A stretch of DNA of 64,000 bases. Source: Saccharothrix sp. Its GTDB lineage: Bacteria; Actinomycetota; Actinomycetes; Mycobacteriales; Pseudonocardiaceae. The notes beneath the pieces are model-generated. The model was not told the DNA's origin, searched no databases, and worked only from the letters and a program-made list of their open reading frames with translations. Position numbers and translations under genes: made by a program. This document shows positions 7,922 through 34,522 of the stretch, one piece after another. Each line of letters opens with the position of its first letter. Positions within the stretch are counted from its first letter, which is position 1. Location: the NCBI RefSeq assembly GCF_031180885.1, contig NZ_JAPSLK010000030.1:1-64000 (forward strand), written 5' to 3'.

Positions 7922-9526
7922 CCGCACTTCTGACCGCACTTCCGAAGGCGCTTCGAGGAACGGGCGCAGGAGGCCCGGCACCGCTTCGTCCGCCACCGCC
8001 AGGCCGTCCGCCTCCGCCACGTCGACGACGTGGTACGCGCCGTCGCCGGCGGCGGTGGTCGCGGAGATGGTGACCAGGCCCGAGCGCCGCTGGAAGAAGG
8101 AGCGGGAGATGCGCCAGCCGATGATGCCGGTGCGCTGCAAGGCGACGGTTTCCCGGATCACCGAGCCCTGGCGGGCCAGGAGGTAGCGGTCGGTCAGGGC
8201 GTGGCCGAGGGAGCGGTAGCGGTCCCACGCGAGGAGTGCGGAGACGGGGAGCAGGGCGATCGGGAGCCACGTCCACGACGGGGCCAGGTACGCCACGACC
8301 GCGGTCAGGACCAGGACCGGGGTGATGGCCCGGATCACGCGGCGGCGCAGGGCGGCGATGGGGTGGCGGCGCAGGGTGGCCTGGGTGGGCGAGGTCGGTT
8401 GGTGCAGGACCAGGGCCGAGACGCGGTGGGCTTCGGTGATCGGGGCCGGTGGGAGGAGGAGGTTGCTCTCGCCCTTGCGGCCCAGGCCCGTGGTGACGGT
8501 CTTGGCGTGCGCGCCGCGCCCGGCCCGCAGGAGCAGGGGTTCCTCGATCTCGACGCCGCGGAGTCGTTGTTCGGCAACGGAAACGGACCTGGTGGTGAGC
8601 AGACCCCGTTGCACGCGAACGGTGTCGTCGGGCTCGCGGGTCAGCCGGTAGCCCCAGAACTGGACGACGTAGACGAGCACCGAACCCAGGCCCGCGATCA
8701 GCAGGACCGCGCCGGTGAACACGGACACCGTCAGCCAGATCGGCTGTTCGACCACCCAGTGCGCGAGGTCGGTCATCGGGCCGAGGACCTCGACGTCGAG
8801 TTCGCGCGCGTAGTTCACGACCAGGCCGAACAGCGCGCCGACCGCGACCAGGCCGGACAGGGTGAGCGGGGCGTAGCGCAGCCAGCGGGTGTCCCAGGTG
8901 GACAGGACGGTGCCTTCGGCGGCCTTCGGCTCGGGGGCTGCGGTGGTGGTGGTGCGGGTGAGGAGGAGTACGCGGAGGCGTTCGGCTTCGGCGGAGGACA
9001 CGGCGTCGAGGGTCAGGCCGTCCTCGCCGGGCTGGTCGCGCTGGCCGGTGCCGACGCGGATCGCGGACAGGCCGAACAGGCGGTGGCCGAGCTTGGCGGT
9101 CAGGTCGACGGTGCGGATGCGGTCGCGGGGCACGGCCAGGCGCTTGCGCACGAACAGACCGGTGTGCAGCTCGACCTGGTCGGCGGTGATGCGGTAGCGG
9201 GTGGTCACCCAGCGCAGCAGGCCGAACACCACGATGGCGACGATCACGCCGACGCTGGCCAGGATGCGCCACGTCTCGCCGCGGCCGAGCAGGAGGAGGC
9301 CGAGGAAGACGGGGACCAGGTTGACGATCTCGTTCAGGGGGCGGACGACGAGCATCCGGACGTCCAGCCGGTGCCAGTCGACGACGGGTTCGGCGTACTC
9401 GGGCGCGACGGGCAGGTCGGTGAGCGGGGCGCTGGTGAGCGGGTCGGCGGGCGGTGCGGCCGGGTGGTCGGCGGGCGGTGCGGCCGGGTCGTCGGCGGGC
9501 GGCGGGGTGGGGTGGTCGGCGGTCAT
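7883..9526 (-). CDS. Large membrane protein with three bacterial PH (bPH2) domains
   Basis: The 547-residue protein resembles Bacillus YdbT. A Pro/Ala-rich cytoplasmic N-terminus (about 1-45) with repeated PPAD blocks is followed by paired helices. Three bPH2 (DUF304) domains then alternate with helix pairs. Each is marked by a tract like RYRITADQVELHTGLF, YRLTREPDDTVRVQRGLL or LTDRYLLARQGSVIRE. In Bacillus the YdbS/YdbT pair belongs to the cell-envelope stress regulon; membrane protection here is inference. Its ATG overlaps the stop of the upstream small PH protein (ATGA), so the two are translationally coupled. Its end runs 39 bp into the convergent regulator gene. Confidence 0.86.
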   Translation of the reverse strand: MTADHPTPPPADDPAAPPADHPAAPPADPLTSAPLTDLPVAPEYAEPVVDWHRLDVRMLVVRPLNEIVNLVPVFLGLLLLGRGETWRILASVGVIVAIVVFGLLRWVTTRYRITADQVELHTGLFVRKRLAVPRDRIRTVDLTAKLGHRLFGLSAIRVGTGQRDQPGEDGLTLDAVSSAEAERLRVLLLTRTTTTAAPEPKAAEGTVLSTWDTRWLRYAPLTLSGLVAVGALFGLVVNYARELDVEVLGPMTDLAHWVVEQPIWLTVSVFTGAVLLIAGLGSVLVYVVQFWGYRLTREPDDTVRVQRGLLTTRSVSVAEQRLRGVEIEEPLLLRAGRGAHAKTVTTGLGRKGESNLLLPPAPITEAHRVSALVLHQPTSPTQATLRRHPIAALRRRVIRAITPVLVLTAVVAYLAPSWTWLPIALLPVSALLAWDRYRSLGHALTDRYLLARQGSVIRETVALQRTGIIGWRISRSFFQRRSGLVTISATTAAGDGAYHVVDVAEADGLAVADEAVPGLLRPFLEAPSEVRSEVRSGGAEGGAVGAG

Positions 9527-10023
9527 GTCGCGTCGCCCGGGGTGGCCTGGGTGGTGGTGGTGAGTTCGTCGGCGAGGCGGACGGCCTCGTCGTGGTCCAA
9601 GCCCTCGATGTGCACCGGGCCGGCGGCGGACGCCGTGGTGACCGTCACCGTGGACAGGCCCAGGAGCTGCTGCAACGGGCCGCGCTTGGTGTCGACGGTC
9701 TGGATGCGGGACACGGGCGCGATGCGCCACTCCTGGTTGAGCCAGCCGGCCAGCGTGTAGACCGCGTCCGGGGTGGCCTCCCAGCGGTGCACCCGGTACC
9801 GCCAGCGCGGCATGACCAGGGTGTGCGCGATGCCCACGACCAGGGTGGCGACCAGGGCCGCGACCTGCCACGACGTGCCGCCGAAGGGCAGCGCGACGAG
9901 TTGGGGCACCAGGAGCACGGCCCAGCCGATCACGGCGTGCAACGTCCAGAGGGTGATCGACTTGCGGCTCACCCGGTGCCGCGGCGCGCGCAGGCGCAGC
10001 TGATCGGTGCTCACACGGTCCAC
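9523..10023 (-). CDS. Small bPH2-domain membrane protein (YdbS-like)
   Basis: The 166-residue protein has two adjacent transmembrane helices (about 25-75) and then one bPH2 domain. The domain contains YRVHRWEATPDAVYTLAG and a conserved RIQTVDTKRGPLQQLLGL segment. It is the small partner of the three-domain protein downstream; the 4-bp ATGA overlap and the known YdbS/YdbT pairing suggest a two-subunit complex. GTG codons at 10023 and 10014 both fit; the second gives MSTDQLRL and is equally likely. No strong ribosome site is visible, so the message may have a very short leader. The palindromic repeat element begins about 20 bp upstream. Confidence 0.85.
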   Translation of the reverse strand: MDRVSTDQLRLRAPRHRVSRKSITLWTLHAVIGWAVLLVPQLVALPFGGTSWQVAALVATLVVGIAHTLVMPRWRYRVHRWEATPDAVYTLAGWLNQEWRIAPVSRIQTVDTKRGPLQQLLGLSTVTVTTASAAGPVHIEGLDHDEAVRLADELTTTTQATPGDAT

Positions 10024-10043: not shown

Positions 10044-10179
10044 GCTGTGTTGAATGGCGCGACTGGCGTCGCGCGGCTCGGCCGCCCTGGGTGTCGGCTT
10101 GTCGCGCCGCGTTTTCCGCCGATCGAAGAGCGTGATCGTCGGAAAAGGCGACGCGACAAGCCGACGGCGGCCTCGCGGG
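10044..10179. repeat. Dispersed palindromic element, copy 1
   Basis: The core is a 32-bp inverted repeat (10093-10124 and 10134-10165) around a 9-nt spacer, with about four unpaired positions. A second small hairpin, GCGCGAC-TGGC-GTCGCGC, lies at 10058-10075. The same element, with the same two hairpins and flanks, occurs at 32320-32454. In both places it ends about 20 bp before the start of a minus-strand gene. No transposase is present. It could be a MITE/REP-like mobile palindrome or a structured 5' leader. Confidence 0.85.
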
Positions 10180-30636: not shown

Positions 30637-32307
30637 CTACTTGGCGTCCGCGTAGCACTCCACCGGGACGGCGTGGATCGGGAAGCGGACCGGGGTGTCA
30701 CCGAAGACCAGGGAGGAGGCCTCGGCACCGGCCGCGGCGACCTCGGCGCACACCGCCTCCGCCGACTCGGTCGGTGTGTGCACCAGGACCTCGTCGTGCT
30801 GGAAGAAAACCAGGTGCGCGCCCGGCGCTGTTCGGCGCAGGCGTCTTCGCAGCGCGCCCAGGAGCGCGGCGGTCCAGTCGGCCGCGCTCGCCTGCACCAC
30901 GAAGTTGCGGGTGAACCGGCCCCAGTCGCGGGCCGCCCGCCGGGACTGCCGGGCCTCCTCCTCGCCCTCCTCGGCGTTGCCGGTCAGCGCGTGCCACGCC
31001 TCGGACGGTGTCGGACTGGTGCGGCCCAACCGCGAGCGGACCATCCGGCCCTGCTCACCGGCCACCGCGGCGGCCTCCACGTACCCCACCGCCTCGGGGA
31101 ACCGGCGTCTCAGGACGGCCAGCAGCGGACCGGCCTCGCCGCTGGTGCCGCCGTACATCGCGGACAGCATGGCGATCTTCGCCCGCCCCCGGTCGCCGTC
31201 GAACGCGTCCGCCGCCAGGGTCGTGTACAGGTCGTCGTCGCCGGCCACTTCCGCCAGGCGGCGATCACCCGACAGGGCCGCCAGCACGCGCGGCTCCAGC
31301 TGGGACGCGTCCGCCGCCACCAACGACCACCCCGGATCGGCCACCACGGCCCGCCGCAGCGTCCGGGGGATCTGCAGGGCCGCCCCACCCCGCGTCGCCC
31401 ACCGACCGGACACCACGCCGCCCACCACGTAGTCCGGCCGGAACCGGCCCTGCGACACCCACTGGTCCAGCCACGACCACCCGTGCGCCACCCACAGCCG
31501 CGCCAGTTCCTTGTACTCCAGCAGGGGCGCGACCGCCGGGTGGTCGACCTGCTTCAACACCCACGCCCGGGTGGACGGGACGTCGATGCCCTCCCGGCCG
31601 AACGCCCGCACGATGCCCGCCGGCGCGTCCGGGTTCACCGAACGCCCGCCGAACGCGGCCGTGATCCGGTCGGCCAGCTCGGCGAGCTTGGCCGGCCGGG
31701 CGCCGTTCACCGGACGCGGCCCCAGCATCTCGGTGAGCAACGCGTCGTGGACGTCCTCGCGCCAGGGCAGGCCGTGGAAGGTCATCTCGGCCGCCGCCAG
31801 GGCGCTCGCGGACTCGGCGGCCACCAGCAGCCGGAGGCGGTCGGCGTGGGGCAGGCCGGCGAGTGTTCGCTGCTGCTCCGCGTGGACGGCGATCACGGCG
31901 TCGAGCGGGTCCGCGTCACCGGGCAGGGGTTCGCGTTCGGGTTCGAACAGGGTGGGCTGGGACTCGCGCTTGCGCGGCCCCTGGTCCTCGGGGACGGGGA
32001 GCCCCCGCAGCCGCGCGAGCGCCGCGCCCAGGCCGCGGGGTTCGCGGTGTCTGCCCTGGTAGGCGAGCAGCAGCGATTCCACGTGCCACAGGTCCAGGCA
32101 TCGCTGCACCCGCACGCCCCGGGCCAGCAGCTCGGGATAGATCTCCGCCGTGGACGACCACAGCCAGCGCGGCTCCCGCAGCTCCCACTCCGCGACGGTG
32201 GCGGCCAGGTCGGACGTCTCGATCACCGGCCCGGTGGGCACGCCGGCGTCGGAGAGCGGCCGGAGGCGACCGGCGTTCTCCGCGTGCGGCACCAGAGCGA
32301 TGAACAT
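30637..32307 (-). CDS. Bifunctional 3'-5' exonuclease/family-A DNA polymerase
   Basis: The 556-residue protein resembles the C-terminal two thirds of DNA polymerase I without the 5' nuclease. The polymerase motifs are clear: motif A VAADASQLEPRVLAALS, motif B RAKIAMLSAMYGGTSG (altered from the usual RxxxKxxxFxxxYG) and motif C FQHDEVLVHTP. The N-terminal half keeps only an exonuclease-like fold; its metal ligands (DEDD) are not obvious. It is a second family-A polymerase found across actinomycetes, distinct from housekeeping PolA (about 900 aa); its function is not established. ATG at 32307 was chosen because the frame before it enters the palindromic repeat. The repeat element ends 13 bp upstream. 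Confidence 0.9.
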   Translation of the reverse strand: MFIALVPHAENAGRLRPLSDAGVPTGPVIETSDLAATVAEWELREPRWLWSSTAEIYPELLARGVRVQRCLDLWHVESLLLAYQGRHREPRGLGAALARLRGLPVPEDQGPRKRESQPTLFEPEREPLPGDADPLDAVIAVHAEQQRTLAGLPHADRLRLLVAAESASALAAAEMTFHGLPWREDVHDALLTEMLGPRPVNGARPAKLAELADRITAAFGGRSVNPDAPAGIVRAFGREGIDVPSTRAWVLKQVDHPAVAPLLEYKELARLWVAHGWSWLDQWVSQGRFRPDYVVGGVVSGRWATRGGAALQIPRTLRRAVVADPGWSLVAADASQLEPRVLAALSGDRRLAEVAGDDDLYTTLAADAFDGDRGRAKIAMLSAMYGGTSGEAGPLLAVLRRRFPEAVGYVEAAAVAGEQGRMVRSRLGRTSPTPSEAWHALTGNAEEGEEEARQSRRAARDWGRFTRNFVVQASAADWTAALLGALRRRLRRTAPGAHLVFFQHDEVLVHTPTESAEAVCAEVAAAGAEASSLVFGDTPVRFPIHAVPVECYADAK

Positions 32308-32319
32308 GCCTCGGATTGT

Positions 32320-32454
32320 GCTGTATCGGATGGCCGCGACTGGCGTCGCGGCGGCGAGGCCGCCCGGAAGTCGGCTCGTCGCGCCGCGTTTCCCGCCGAT
32401 CGAAAAGCATGATCGTCGGGAAGGGCGACGCGACAAGCCGACGCGGCCTCGCGG
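32320..32454. repeat. Dispersed palindromic element, copy 2
   Basis: This is the second copy of the element at 10044-10179. The long inverted repeat is 32370-32401 and 32411-32442, with a 9-nt spacer. The small hairpin here is GCCGCGAC-TGGC-GTCGCGGC (32333-32352), one base pair longer than in copy 1. In the long stem a T-A pair has become C-G, so the pairing is kept although the sequence has changed. It lies 13 bp upstream of the polymerase gene start and 65 bp before the divergent TPR gene. Confidence 0.85.
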
Positions 32455-32518
32455 GAGCGGGGGCGGTCGGAGGGACCAACCCGATCGTGGTTCGCGGGCG
32501 GGTGCAGGATATGGGCCC

Positions 32519-34522
32519 GTGATCGGATCGCCAGGTGCGCTGCTGGACCCGCGGCACGAGGTGGTGCCCTTCCACGGCCGGGCCGCCGAACTCGCCGGGC
32601 TGGCGCGCTGGCGGGACGCGGCCGTGCTGCGGTCGGTGCTGCTCCTGCACGGTCGGTCCGGGGTGGGCAAGACCCGGCTGGCCCGGCGGTTCGCCGACGA
32701 CGGGCTGGTCGTGCTGGACGACGCGGACCTCCTGCCGTGGCACGACGTCCACGCCGTCCTGCGCGACGGGCCGACCCGGGTGCTGCTGGTCGCCCGCGGC
32801 GCGGGCTGGTGGTGGTCGGCCACCCGCCAACGCGCCCGCGACCTGCACTACGCGACCGAGGACCTCGAACTCGGACCATGCCCCGAGGAGCACGAGTGGT
32901 CGTTCGCGACCGCCTGCGAGCGGTTCGCCGACGCGCTGGACCTGCCCCGGCCCCGCGTGGAAACCCCGCCCTGCGACACGTTCTACGACGTCCACCTGGC
33001 CGCGCTGGCCGCCGTCCACGGCGATCCCGGCGACCACCTCGTCGACCGCGTCCGCCGGGTGGTCAGCGTCGACCCGAACCCGCCGACCACCGGCCGCCTC
33101 GCCGAGGACGCCCTCGCGGTGACCCTCCTGGACAACCGCATCGCACCCGCGCCGGACGCCCTGGACACCCTCCTGCGCGCCGCCGAGCGCTGGCCGCACG
33201 TCCGCGACCGGGCGGTCGAGCTGTTCGCCGCCGACCCCGGACTGGTCGCCAAGGCGGGCATCGGGCCGTTGCGGGTCCTCCACGACCACCCGGAAGTCGT
33301 TGCGCGCCAAGTGTTCGACGATCCGCGCTGCCATGGTGACGTCCTGCCCGCCCTCCTCACTCAAGCGCTGTTGAGGAACACGGACGACATCGCCGCACGG
33401 GCCGAGCTGAACGGGCTGCTCAGCGCCCGCGCCGCGCTCGCCGCGCTGGGCGAGGAGGCCGTGCAGGCGTCCCGCGCGGAAGTCGCGCTGTACCGGCAGT
33501 TGGTCGACCGGGAACCAGTCGCGCACCGGTTGGCGAACGCGTTGGGGGACTTGAGCTTGCGCCTGGTGGCGGTGCGGCGGAACGACGAAGCCCTGGTGGC
33601 GGCGGAGGAAGCGGTCCGCTGGTGCCGGTTGCTGGTCACCGGCGACCCGGACACCCTTGCACCGCTCGCCGCCGCTCTCGACCGGTTGGGCCTGCGGTAC
33701 GCGGCGGTGGGCCGCAAGGAGGACGCGGCGGCGGCCGTCACCGAGTCCGCCGGGCTGTTCGACGACCTGGCCCGCCGGCAACCCGCGCGGTTCCGGCTCG
33801 ACGCCGCGAAGGCCGCGCACCACCTGGCGGCCCGGCTGTTCGACGTGGGCCGGCGCGCGGAGGCCGGGCACGCGACGCGGCGCGCGGTGCTCCAGTGGCG
33901 GGCGGTCGCGGGCGACGACCCGCGCTACGAAGCCGAGTTCGCCCGGACGTTGCGGTCCGTGGCGGCGCTGCTGGCGTCGTTCGGCAGGCCCACGGAGGCG
34001 GCGGCGGTGGTGCGCGAGTCGATCGGCGTGCTGCGGAGGCTGGCCGAGGTCAACCCGCGCGACTTCGAGCCGGTCCTGGCTTCTGCTTTGGGCGATCTGG
34101 GCGTGCTGTTCCGGAGGCTGGACCGCCGGTCCGAGGCGGCGCAGGCGTTCGAGGACGCGGTGGCGGTGTGGCGGCGGGTGCCCCGGGCGACCGTGCGGCT
34201 GGCCGAGGCGTGGCACCTGCTGGCCGACAGCGCGGTCACCAACGAGGACGCCCGGATCGGCGCGCGCACGGCGTTGCTGCTGTGGCACCTAACCGGACAC
34301 GGGGACGAGATCCGTTACGCCGAAACGCTTTCGCTGTACGCGCGGCGGTGCGCCGAGGTCGGCGCGGATCTCGATCGCGCCCTGGCGGCGGCGCACAAAG
34401 CGGTGGCGCTGCTGCGGTCCGCGCAGGCCGATCCGGAACGGCTGGCCCGCGCGGAGCACGCGGTGGCGGAGGTGGTCCGGGCGCACCCCACGCGCACCCC
34501 GGACCTCCCCAGCTCTTCCTAG
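32519..34522 (+). CDS. P-loop NTPase with TPR array
   Basis: This 667-residue protein has an NTPase domain at the N-terminus (Walker A HGRSGVGKTRLARRF at about 40-55; Walker B-like VVLDDADLLP). A long helical region follows, then tetratricopeptide repeats (about 280-650; for example DEALVAAEEAVRWCRLLVTG). This resembles the STAND/AfsR-type regulators of actinomycetes but lacks any DNA-binding domain. It may therefore act through protein contacts. I chose GTG at 32519, with AGGA about 10 bases upstream; the earlier part of the frame runs through the repeat element. It ends 4 bp into the convergent proline dehydrogenase gene. Confidence 0.8.
   Translation: MIGSPGALLDPRHEVVPFHGRAAELAGLARWRDAAVLRSVLLLHGRSGVGKTRLARRFADDGLVVLDDADLLPWHDVHAVLRDGPTRVLLVARGAGWWWSATRQRARDLHYATEDLELGPCPEEHEWSFATACERFADALDLPRPRVETPPCDTFYDVHLAALAAVHGDPGDHLVDRVRRVVSVDPNPPTTGRLAEDALAVTLLDNRIAPAPDALDTLLRAAERWPHVRDRAVELFAADPGLVAKAGIGPLRVLHDHPEVVARQVFDDPRCHGDVLPALLTQALLRNTDDIAARAELNGLLSARAALAALGEEAVQASRAEVALYRQLVDREPVAHRLANALGDLSLRLVAVRRNDEALVAAEEAVRWCRLLVTGDPDTLAPLAAALDRLGLRYAAVGRKEDAAAAVTESAGLFDDLARRQPARFRLDAAKAAHHLAARLFDVGRRAEAGHATRRAVLQWRAVAGDDPRYEAEFARTLRSVAALLASFGRPTEAAAVVRESIGVLRRLAEVNPRDFEPVLASALGDLGVLFRRLDRRSEAAQAFEDAVAVWRRVPRATVRLAEAWHLLADSAVTNEDARIGARTALLLWHLTGHGDEIRYAETLSLYARRCAEVGADLDRALAAAHKAVALLRSAQADPERLARAEHAVAEVVRAHPTRTPDLPSSS

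What the first reader, a model, noticed from the sequence alone, without database searches (positions are those of the whole stretch)
10044..10179. Dispersed ~135-bp two-hairpin element, copy 1, just upstream of a PH-domain operon
A 32-bp inverted repeat and a small second hairpin occur here and again at 32320-32454, with shared flanks. Between copies a T-A pair becomes C-G in the long stem, and the small stem gains a full base pair. Selection thus appears to act on pairing, not sequence. Both copies end about 20 bp before the start of a minus-strand gene. This fits either a MITE-like element or a structured leader/regulatory RNA class.
Basis: seen in the sequence. Interest (0 to 1): 0.72.

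Follow-up and report, generated by a model that had tools for sequence, protein, structure and literature searches.

The report
Mobile structured hairpin element, many copies
The 135-base hairpin seen twice in this window is one of dozens of copies of a non-coding mobile element in a soil actinobacterium whose folded single strand, rather than its exact sequence, is preserved, and whose truncated copies mostly keep the same end, as if it were copied from that end.

Summary
I kept 83 near-full places in the own genome (Saccharothrix group); 22 of 25 genomes of the genus, the own included, have matches. All share one architecture on the minus strand: P1 enclosing a long hairpin P2 with a 5-6 nt bulge, a small hairpin P3 and a conserved 3' tail NATYCAACACAG. 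Pairing is kept by massive covariation (35 of 43 pairs changed on both sides), and mispairs are G-U on that strand far more than A-C (311:62), so one single strand is under selection. In the 20 relatives fetched per site, none has the element at site 1 and three have other insertions at site 2. Neighbouring genes are unrelated and orientation is mixed, so it is no leader class. It is a non-autonomous mobile element, without terminal inverted repeats or a constant target duplication. Most truncated units lost the 5' side, arrays are head-to-tail, and some insertions replaced target DNA. I favour 3'-anchored copying of the folded strand, perhaps RNA (SINE-like), by an unidentified enzyme. One genome with at least 63 copies has neither RVT_1 nor Y1 genes, so that step is inference.

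The parts
10044..10179 (-). Element copy 1 (136 bp); the selected (RNA-like) strand is minus, so its 5' end is at 10179 and its 3' end at 10044
   Evidence: blast family; covariance model 151.8 bits
10166..10176 (-). P1, 5' arm (GCGAGGCCGCC on the minus strand), pairs with 10076-10086
   Evidence: covariation
10133..10165 (-). P2 long hairpin, 5' arm (33 nt)
10126..10132 (-). P2 terminal loop (as in the DNA fold)
10093..10125 (-). P2 long hairpin, 3' arm (33 nt)
10087..10092 (-). Unpaired bulge of 5-6 nt between P2 and P1 on the 3' side, also seen in most elements of other genera folded
10076..10086 (-). P1, 3' arm
10057..10074 (-). P3 small hairpin (7 bp, loop 10064-10067)
10044..10056 (-). 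Conserved unpaired 3' tail CATTCAACACAGC (family NATYCAACACAG)
32320..32455 (-). Element copy 2, same architecture (P3 8 bp, P1 uninterrupted)
9523..10023 (-). Neighbour gene, bacterial PH domain (bPH_2); not part of the element
30637..32307 (-). Neighbour gene, DNA polymerase family A domain; not part of the element
32519..34522 (+). Divergent neighbour gene, AAA/TPR protein; copy 2 lies between two divergent starts

Best explanation
The feature is a non-autonomous, non-coding mobile element. Shown: many dispersed copies, orthologous sites without it, separate insertions in one intergenic region, a fold conserved by massive covariation on one specific strand. Inferred: the folded single strand is the mobile intermediate; an enzyme acting in trans recognises the 3' part (P3 plus the tail ATYCAACACAG) and copies the element from its 3' end into a broken or nicked target, so that interrupted copying leaves 5'-truncated copies, jumping to a second template leaves head-to-tail arrays joined at the tail, and repair of the target leaves a long duplication, a deletion or neither. 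The intermediate is most likely RNA read through from neighbouring genes and reverse transcribed (SINE-like); single-stranded DNA is not excluded. The enzyme is not identified.
For: Copy number. Sites without the element and separate insertions. Covariation: A4, 118 rows, 97.6% of cells paired, 35 of 43 pairs changed on both sides, 0 of 500 shuffles as high; A6, 53 rows across genera, 97.8%, 38 of 43. One strand: with an arm alignment that treats both strands alike, G-U against A-C is 184:46 (83 A4 rows, own genome), 71:4 (35 A4 rows, G020), 34:8 (20 elements of other genera), 22:4 (14 of other Saccharothrix genomes); element by element 124 have more G-U and 5 more A-C. 3' end: pattern GCVATYCAACACAG with at most 1 mismatch, 55 hits in the own genome against 0 for the reversed pattern. 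Polarity: of the 23 partial-unit rows of at least 75% identity (28 rows) I read 12 as 5'-truncated with the 3' part kept, 3 as internal deletions with both ends (L092, L102, L128), 1 as lacking the 3' part (L138 2483-2517) and 7 as full or nearly full. In the 10 array junctions among the 12, the upstream unit keeps its tail, and in 8 of 10 the truncated unit starts after a GC that matches the tail's terminal GC. Target alteration: direct repeats of 47 bp (C51:741103) and 11 bp (C70:29850) flank two copies; target sequence is replaced, against one relative, at C51:687016, C51:752984 and C23:71138.
Against: No reverse transcriptase of family RVT_1 found in G020 (at least 63 copies listed), G001 or G006, while two genomes in which no copy was found, G011 and G026, have one. 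So either the enzyme is of another kind or was lost, or the RNA step is wrong. Most insertions show no target duplication above chance. Part of the truncation can be deletion of the unstable palindrome: G031 keeps only P3 plus tail where G000 has a full copy (C34:103755), G021 has an insertion with both ends but no long hairpin, and GC microhomology also fits slippage. Partial copies were counted only in the flanks of full copies and in loci fetched by a 3'-end pattern; a genome-wide search with a 5'-end pattern was not run. Several of the 12 truncated units share a start point and are not independent. G-T pairs are also tolerated in single-stranded DNA (recalled). Transcription was not observed.
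Confidence: 0.42

Rival explanations
1. An ordinary non-autonomous DNA element (MITE in the loose sense) moved in trans by an unrecognised DNA transposase; the fold is needed for the transposase or for stability, and truncation comes from deletion of the palindrome.
For: Dispersed copies, sites without them in relatives; no RVT_1 found in G020; hairpin loss seen at C34:103755 and in G021; internal deletions with both ends.
Against: No terminal inverted repeats by reading of the alignment; no constant target duplication; by eye, no transposase among the protein clusters recurring next to copies; strand-specific G-U excess; truncation mostly at the 5' side.
Confidence: 0.33
2. A single-stranded DNA element of the HUH kind (REP/RAYT, IS200/IS605, IS91 or Helitron-like): a tyrosine HUH enzyme cuts beside P3 at the conserved tail.
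For: Conserved unpaired sequence next to a small hairpin; insertion into the loop region of an older inverted repeat at site 1, my reading; head-to-tail arrays; Y1_Tnp genes exist in two genomes of the genus with many rows, G022 and G028.
Against: Y1_Tnp (PF01797) not found in G000, G020, G031, G001, G006, G010; no strand bias per half of the G020 chromosome among the 63 copies listed (16:16 and 17:14). Two-tyrosine enzymes were not searched.
Confidence: 0.13
3. A functional RNA or terminator module that hosts keep: it replaces terminators after stop codons and stabilises or ends transcripts.
For: In the own genome, among the 46 copies between co-directional genes, 33 lie closer to the stop and 33 are in sense orientation (p 0.0045 each); in G020 convergent gaps are used more than divergent ones (12:4); at C51:687016 the relative has a terminator-like hairpin where G000 has the element, at C51:752984 half of one is replaced.
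Against: In G020 co-directional orientation is 9:9; divergent and convergent gaps are equally used in G000 (16:16); the sites lack the element in relatives; no run of T follows the hairpins in the consensus.
Confidence: 0.08
4. A 5' leader or riboswitch class.
For: Both window copies lie 12-20 nt upstream of a minus-strand gene; strong fold and covariation.
Against: Mixed orientation and position over 83 copies; unrelated genes beside the window copies; orthologous sites without it; no Rfam match to it at gathering scores in the window; low-threshold scans gave only hits far below gathering scores, mostly eukaryotic microRNA hairpin models.
Confidence: 0.03

Closest known systems
bcr1-bcr18 repeats of the Bacillus cereus group (PMC3446304, passages read; the original papers are known only from its reference list and recall)
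   Same: Intergenic dispersed elements; bcr1-bcr3 called MITE-like, bcr10 and bcr18 with conserved secondary structure; about half of copies transcribed
   Different: Other phylum; bcr1 has a target duplication of its own (recalled), not found here; sequences were not compared
REP/BIME and REPINs with RAYT transposases (PMC3733652, abstract and passages)
   Same: High-copy intergenic palindromes, non-autonomous, predominantly downstream of coding regions
   Different: REPs are 20-40 bp with a GTAG or CGTC tag; here 135 nt, no such tag noticed, and no Y1_Tnp gene was found in six of the eight searched Saccharothrix genomes that have 20 or more rows
Stem-loop repeat families of bacterial genomes such as ERIC, NEMIS/Correia, YPAL, RUP, BOX (PMC2267715, abstract and one section read)
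   Same: Models of 46-168 bp in that survey, dispersed, mostly intergenic, hairpin-forming
   Different: Terminal inverted repeats and TA-type duplications are recalled for several; here the two ends differ. The table read lists no Pseudonocardiaceae species
SINEs mobilised by LINE reverse transcriptases (eukaryotes; recalled)
   Same: Conserved 3' part, 5' truncation, variable target duplications and deletions, no inverted ends, movement in trans
   Different: Not known to me from bacteria; partner reverse transcriptase not found; no A-rich tail
Integron attC sites (recalled)
   Same: Structure rather than sequence conserved on one strand; ATCCAAC in the tail fits the RYYYAAC box
   Different: By eye only one such box, with no GTTRRRY partner at the other end, and the elements carry no cassette

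Membership tests
MITE | Short, non-coding, many dispersed copies, missing from orthologous sites | tested here: met
MITE | Terminal inverted repeats at both ends | tested here: not met
   5' end (ccc)GCGAGGCCGC and 3' end ATYCAACACAG are not complementary; P1 is internal on the 3' side
MITE | Target duplication of constant length | tested here: not met
   117 junction pairs at chance level except 47 bp and 11 bp; three further high scores in G020 are C-rich stretches or neighbouring copies by my reading
MITE | Autonomous parent transposon with the same ends | tested here: inconclusive
   No transposase seen by eye among recurring neighbours; not searched by end sequence over whole genomes
REP/RAYT (and IS200/IS605) | Y1_Tnp (PF01797) transposase in the genome | tested here: not met
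   Not found in G000, G020, G031, G001, G006, G010; found in 5 of 19 genomes: G022, G028, G025, G032, G223
Retroposon (SINE-like) | Intact 3' end with 5' truncation | tested here: met
   12 units 5'-truncated against 1 lacking the 3' part and 3 internal deletions (my reading); flanks of full copies only
Retroposon (SINE-like) | Variable target duplications or deletions | tested here: inconclusive
   Two duplications; replacements at three sites against one relative
Retroposon (SINE-like) | Reverse transcriptase available in copy-rich genomes | tested here: not met
   RVT_1 found in 9 of 19 genomes (G000, G022, G028, G031, G010, G011, G026, G025, G243) but not in G020, G001, G006; present-day absence does not exclude a past enzyme
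Retroposon (SINE-like) | Element is transcribed and reverse transcribed | not testable with these tools
   no expression data
Riboswitch or leader RNA class | Constant position and orientation upstream of related genes | tested here: not met
Known Rfam family | Match above gathering score | tested here: not met
   window (two tRNA genes elsewhere only); low-threshold scans searches gave only hits below gathering scores (best: mir-3130, E 4.5e-10, 60.6 of 95 bits, in L207)
Integron attC | Paired R boxes at both ends | tested here: inconclusive
   Only read by eye; one RYYYAAC-like box, no partner seen

The most novel reading that the evidence does not exclude
A bacterial SINE: a short non-coding RNA parasite of actinobacteria that spreads by 3'-primed reverse transcription in trans, with 5' truncation and template jumping, and that overwrites transcription terminators of its host.
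Probability: 0.28. Interest if true: 0.9.

Novelty: new variant of a known kind. Interest (0 to 1): 0.6.

Why it matters
Short dispersed hairpin repeats in bacteria are usually explained by DNA transposases or by RAYT enzymes. This family keeps a complex fold on one strand by compensatory change over several genera, shows mostly one-sided (5') truncation and replaces target sequence at some sites, and occurs in genomes where neither a Y1 transposase nor a reverse transcriptase of the common family was found (G020, G001, G006). It gives a testable case of whether structured RNA or single-stranded DNA parasites exist in bacteria outside group II introns and retrons, and it yields a ready covariance model for a structured family for which I found no Rfam entry.

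Tried and rejected
Leader/riboswitch reading: rejected by position, orientation and gene content. Known Rfam family: none above gathering score in the window apart from two tRNAs elsewhere; low-threshold scans gave hits below gathering scores, mostly microRNA-type hairpin models that fit long hairpins. REP/RAYT: no Y1_Tnp found in six copy-bearing genomes, though two others with many rows, G022 and G028, have it. Reverse transcriptase partner: RVT_1 not in all copy-rich genomes and present in two genomes without copies found; the G000 gene at C38 is a group II intron maturase with an HNH domain, and no element was found in the 12 Y1 and RT loci fetched; for L237 I scanned another frame than the reverse transcriptase's, so that gene was not typed. 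Phage or plasmid carriage: no match to copy 1 in either collection. Recurrent gene next to copies: only common domains by eye. The first alignment was wrong because genome-search loci are not turned to the match strand; corrected. The reading 'truncated copies are only retro-copies' was weakened by hairpin loss at C34:103755 and in G021. The first count of partial units, 18 three-prime-only against 3 five-prime-only (tests), was too crude; after reading the junctions I use 12 against 1, with 3 internal deletions apart. The microhomology test used 7 of 9; the recount is 8 of 10 and was not re-tested. The family search scored 13 candidates a genome and the class search 8, so absences there are weak.

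Rows dropped: (142 rows) I kept 83 places; left out were opposite-strand echoes of the palindrome, C118:5-140 and C51:9-108 at contig ends, and weak partial places (such as C34:30063-30138 and C51:602514-602592). A4 holds 118 rows (83 own genome, 35 G020), not the same set as the 83 places: it includes one echo on the other strand (L109) and one variant subfamily copy (L005 1770-1903). From G020 I read 34 copies in context of at least 63 listed.

Full report
Observation. The two copies are real at 10044-10179 and 32320-32455. Copy 1 folds with z-scores of -5.1 (RNA, plus), -7.8 (RNA, minus) and -6.7 (DNA, plus), 0 of 200 shuffles as good in each. The compensatory T-A to C-G change and the extra pair in the small stem are present.

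Family. A blast search of the own genome scored 40 of 207 first-look candidates and gave 40 distinct places in one orientation, plus echoes and one short piece. A covariance model R1 from 28 copies gave 142 rows in the own genome among 150 scored candidates; I kept 83 distinct near-full places. In the genus 22 of 25 genomes, the own included, match at E 0.001; G020 has 133 rows, as many as were scored, of which 63 places are in the capped list. In the family 36 of 249 genomes match at E 1e-6, in 7 of 46 genera. In the class 3 of 394 match at E 1e-5 with model R2 (built): the own genome and two genomes of another family of the order. The last two searches scored only 13 and 8 candidates a genome. 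The genus is taken as Saccharothrix: an exact pattern matched S. algeriensis and S. tamanrassetensis contigs whose lengths equal those of G006 and of a G010 contig. No match to copy 1 in the plasmid or phage collections.

Anatomy. On the strand opposite to the printed one: (ccc)GCGAG opens P1; P2 is a hairpin of about 30 bp here and up to about 44 bp in other genera; a bulge of 5-6 nt follows; P1 closes; P3 is a 7-8 bp hairpin with a short loop; the tail NATYCAACACAG ends the element. Elements of other genera and variant subfamilies in the own genome have quite different P2 and P3 sequences with the same kind of fold.

Covariation. On A4 (118 rows) 97.6% of cells pair, 35 of 43 pairs have a change on both sides, covariation score 0.267 against 0.087 in shuffles and at most 0.059 when slid. 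On A6 (53 rows over genera) the values are 97.8%, 38 of 43, 0.602 against 0.165 and at most 0.100. Both alignments were fitted to the model, which leans towards it. The plain alignment A2 of 28 copies, not so fitted, has 7 of 43 pairs with a change on both sides.

Which strand. Under a pure double-strand constraint C to T and G to A are mirror images, so G-U and A-C mispairs should be equal. Aligning each element with its own reverse complement, which favours neither strand, gave G-U:A-C of 184:46, 71:4, 34:8 and 22:4 in four sets; 124 elements have more G-U, 5 more A-C, the rest are even. With fixed columns it is 243:27, and 48:25 (p 0.0095) when I leave out the five pairs richest in G-U, so much of the excess sits in a few columns. 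The strand is minus in the window for both copies. This shows a single-strand constraint; it does not by itself separate RNA from single-stranded DNA.

Position. Three of 83 copies lie inside a called gene. The other 80 are 33 between two sense genes, 13 between two antisense genes, 16 divergent, 16 convergent, 2 with one side not called. Among 46 between co-directional genes 33 are closer to the stop codon (p 0.0045). In G020 (34 copies read) 13 of 18 are closer to the stop (p 0.10), orientation is 9:9, and 12 are convergent against 4 divergent. The gene calls come from my own codon-usage script.

Sites in relatives. Stretches of 20 genomes were fetched for each window copy. Model R1 finds no element in the 20 of site 1 and elements in 3 of the 20 of site 2: G005, G006 and G021. 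At site 1 six genomes were aligned base by base (G031, G010, G020, G009, G006, G025); they have about 10 nt in the loop of an older inverted repeat, and these resemble the element's ends. At site 2 the G005 and G021 insertion starts 14 nt from ours, in the same orientation, with the long hairpin lost in G021, and G006 has one in the opposite orientation further on, so this gap was hit at least three times. Of ten more G000 sites searched in G031: three are occupied in both (C51:107508 with the same junctions; C121:53185 and C51:741103 with different elements and junctions); four lack the element in G031 (C51:687016, C51:752984, C23:71138, C24:89053); at C34:103755 G031 keeps P3 and the tail only; for C105:26025 and C34:37006 one flank only was found. 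At C51:687016 G031 has a long terminator-like hairpin after the stop codon where G000 has the element; at C51:752984 the element stands in place of the 5' arm and loop of such a hairpin; at C23:71138 it replaces about 44 nt; at C24:89053 little changed. The direction of change is inferred from one relative.

Junctions. No target duplication above chance in 117 copies except 47 bp (two mismatches) at C51:741103 and 11 bp at C70:29850; three other high scores, all in G020, are C-rich stretches or neighbouring copies by my reading. At C51:741103 G031 carries a different element with a shorter duplication and other breakpoints (my reading).

Partial copies. A 3'-end pattern gave 55 hits in the own genome, reversed control 0. 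Of the 18 that I inspected outside the R1 places, some are P3-plus-tail remnants, some the 5' end joined to the 3' module, some variant subfamilies and some perhaps chance. In the flanks of full copies 28 partial rows were found; after dropping 5 under 75% identity and reading the other 23, 12 are 5'-truncated, 3 are internal deletions, 1 lacks the 3' part and 7 are full or nearly full. Ten of the 12 follow the tail of another copy; 8 of those 10 start after a GC that matches the tail's end. Several share start points. Starts fall near P2's loop, in its 3' arm and at P3.

Mechanism. The facts fit copying that starts at the 3' end and may stop in the hairpin, with jumps between templates. That is how non-LTR retroelements behave (recalled). 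Against it, RVT_1 was not found in G020, G001 and G006, and was found in G011 and G026, in which no copies were found. Y1 transposases were not found in G000, G020, G031, G001, G006 and G010 but were found in G022 and G028, which have 64 and 35 rows. No copy is more than 95.3% identical to another in the A4 set of the own genome, 99.3% in G020, so recent activity in the own genome is not shown and the enzyme may be gone.

Literature. Searches for Saccharothrix with miniature inverted-repeat (0 papers), dispersed repeats in actinobacteria (3 papers), bcr1 (5), Pseudonocardiaceae palindromes (582, 8 listed), Nocardia repeats (14, 8 listed), actinobacterial MITEs (91, 10 listed), Saccharothrix hairpin repeats (4,260, 10 listed) and prokaryotic SINE or template jumping (51, 10 listed) showed no description of this family among the titles and abstract starts listed. 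The library holds open-licence papers only, and most hits were not listed.

Noticed in passing
window 32308-32518 and L148, L151, L152: One intergenic gap received at least three separate insertions of the family in different species, in both orientations.
   Followed up: partly
L193 2039-2172 (G000 C105): A variant subfamily copy with a wholly different P2 sequence but the same kind of fold and tail lies about 125 bp from a standard copy (L193 1780-1913).
   Followed up: partly
L256, L259-L261, L263, L265, L267 (G294): In a genome of another family the element has up to about 40 nt of extra conserved sequence before its 5' end (GCCGAGTYYWRCGAGGCCCTGA).
   Followed up: partly
G020 copies in L075-L076, L081, L083, L125-L144: The 5' flanks of many G020 copies look rich in C and poor in G, and the 5' end stands more than 30 nt from the called gene on that side in all 34 copies read.
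   Followed up: no
L155 (G030) and L164 (G028): About 1.2 and 1.7 kb lie between the two flank matches of the intergenic region that is orthologous to copy 2; no element was found in the fetched stretches, the rest was not examined.
   Followed up: no
L233 (G000 C38): A group II intron maturase with reverse transcriptase, maturase and HNH domains; no element copy found in the fetched locus.
   Followed up: yes
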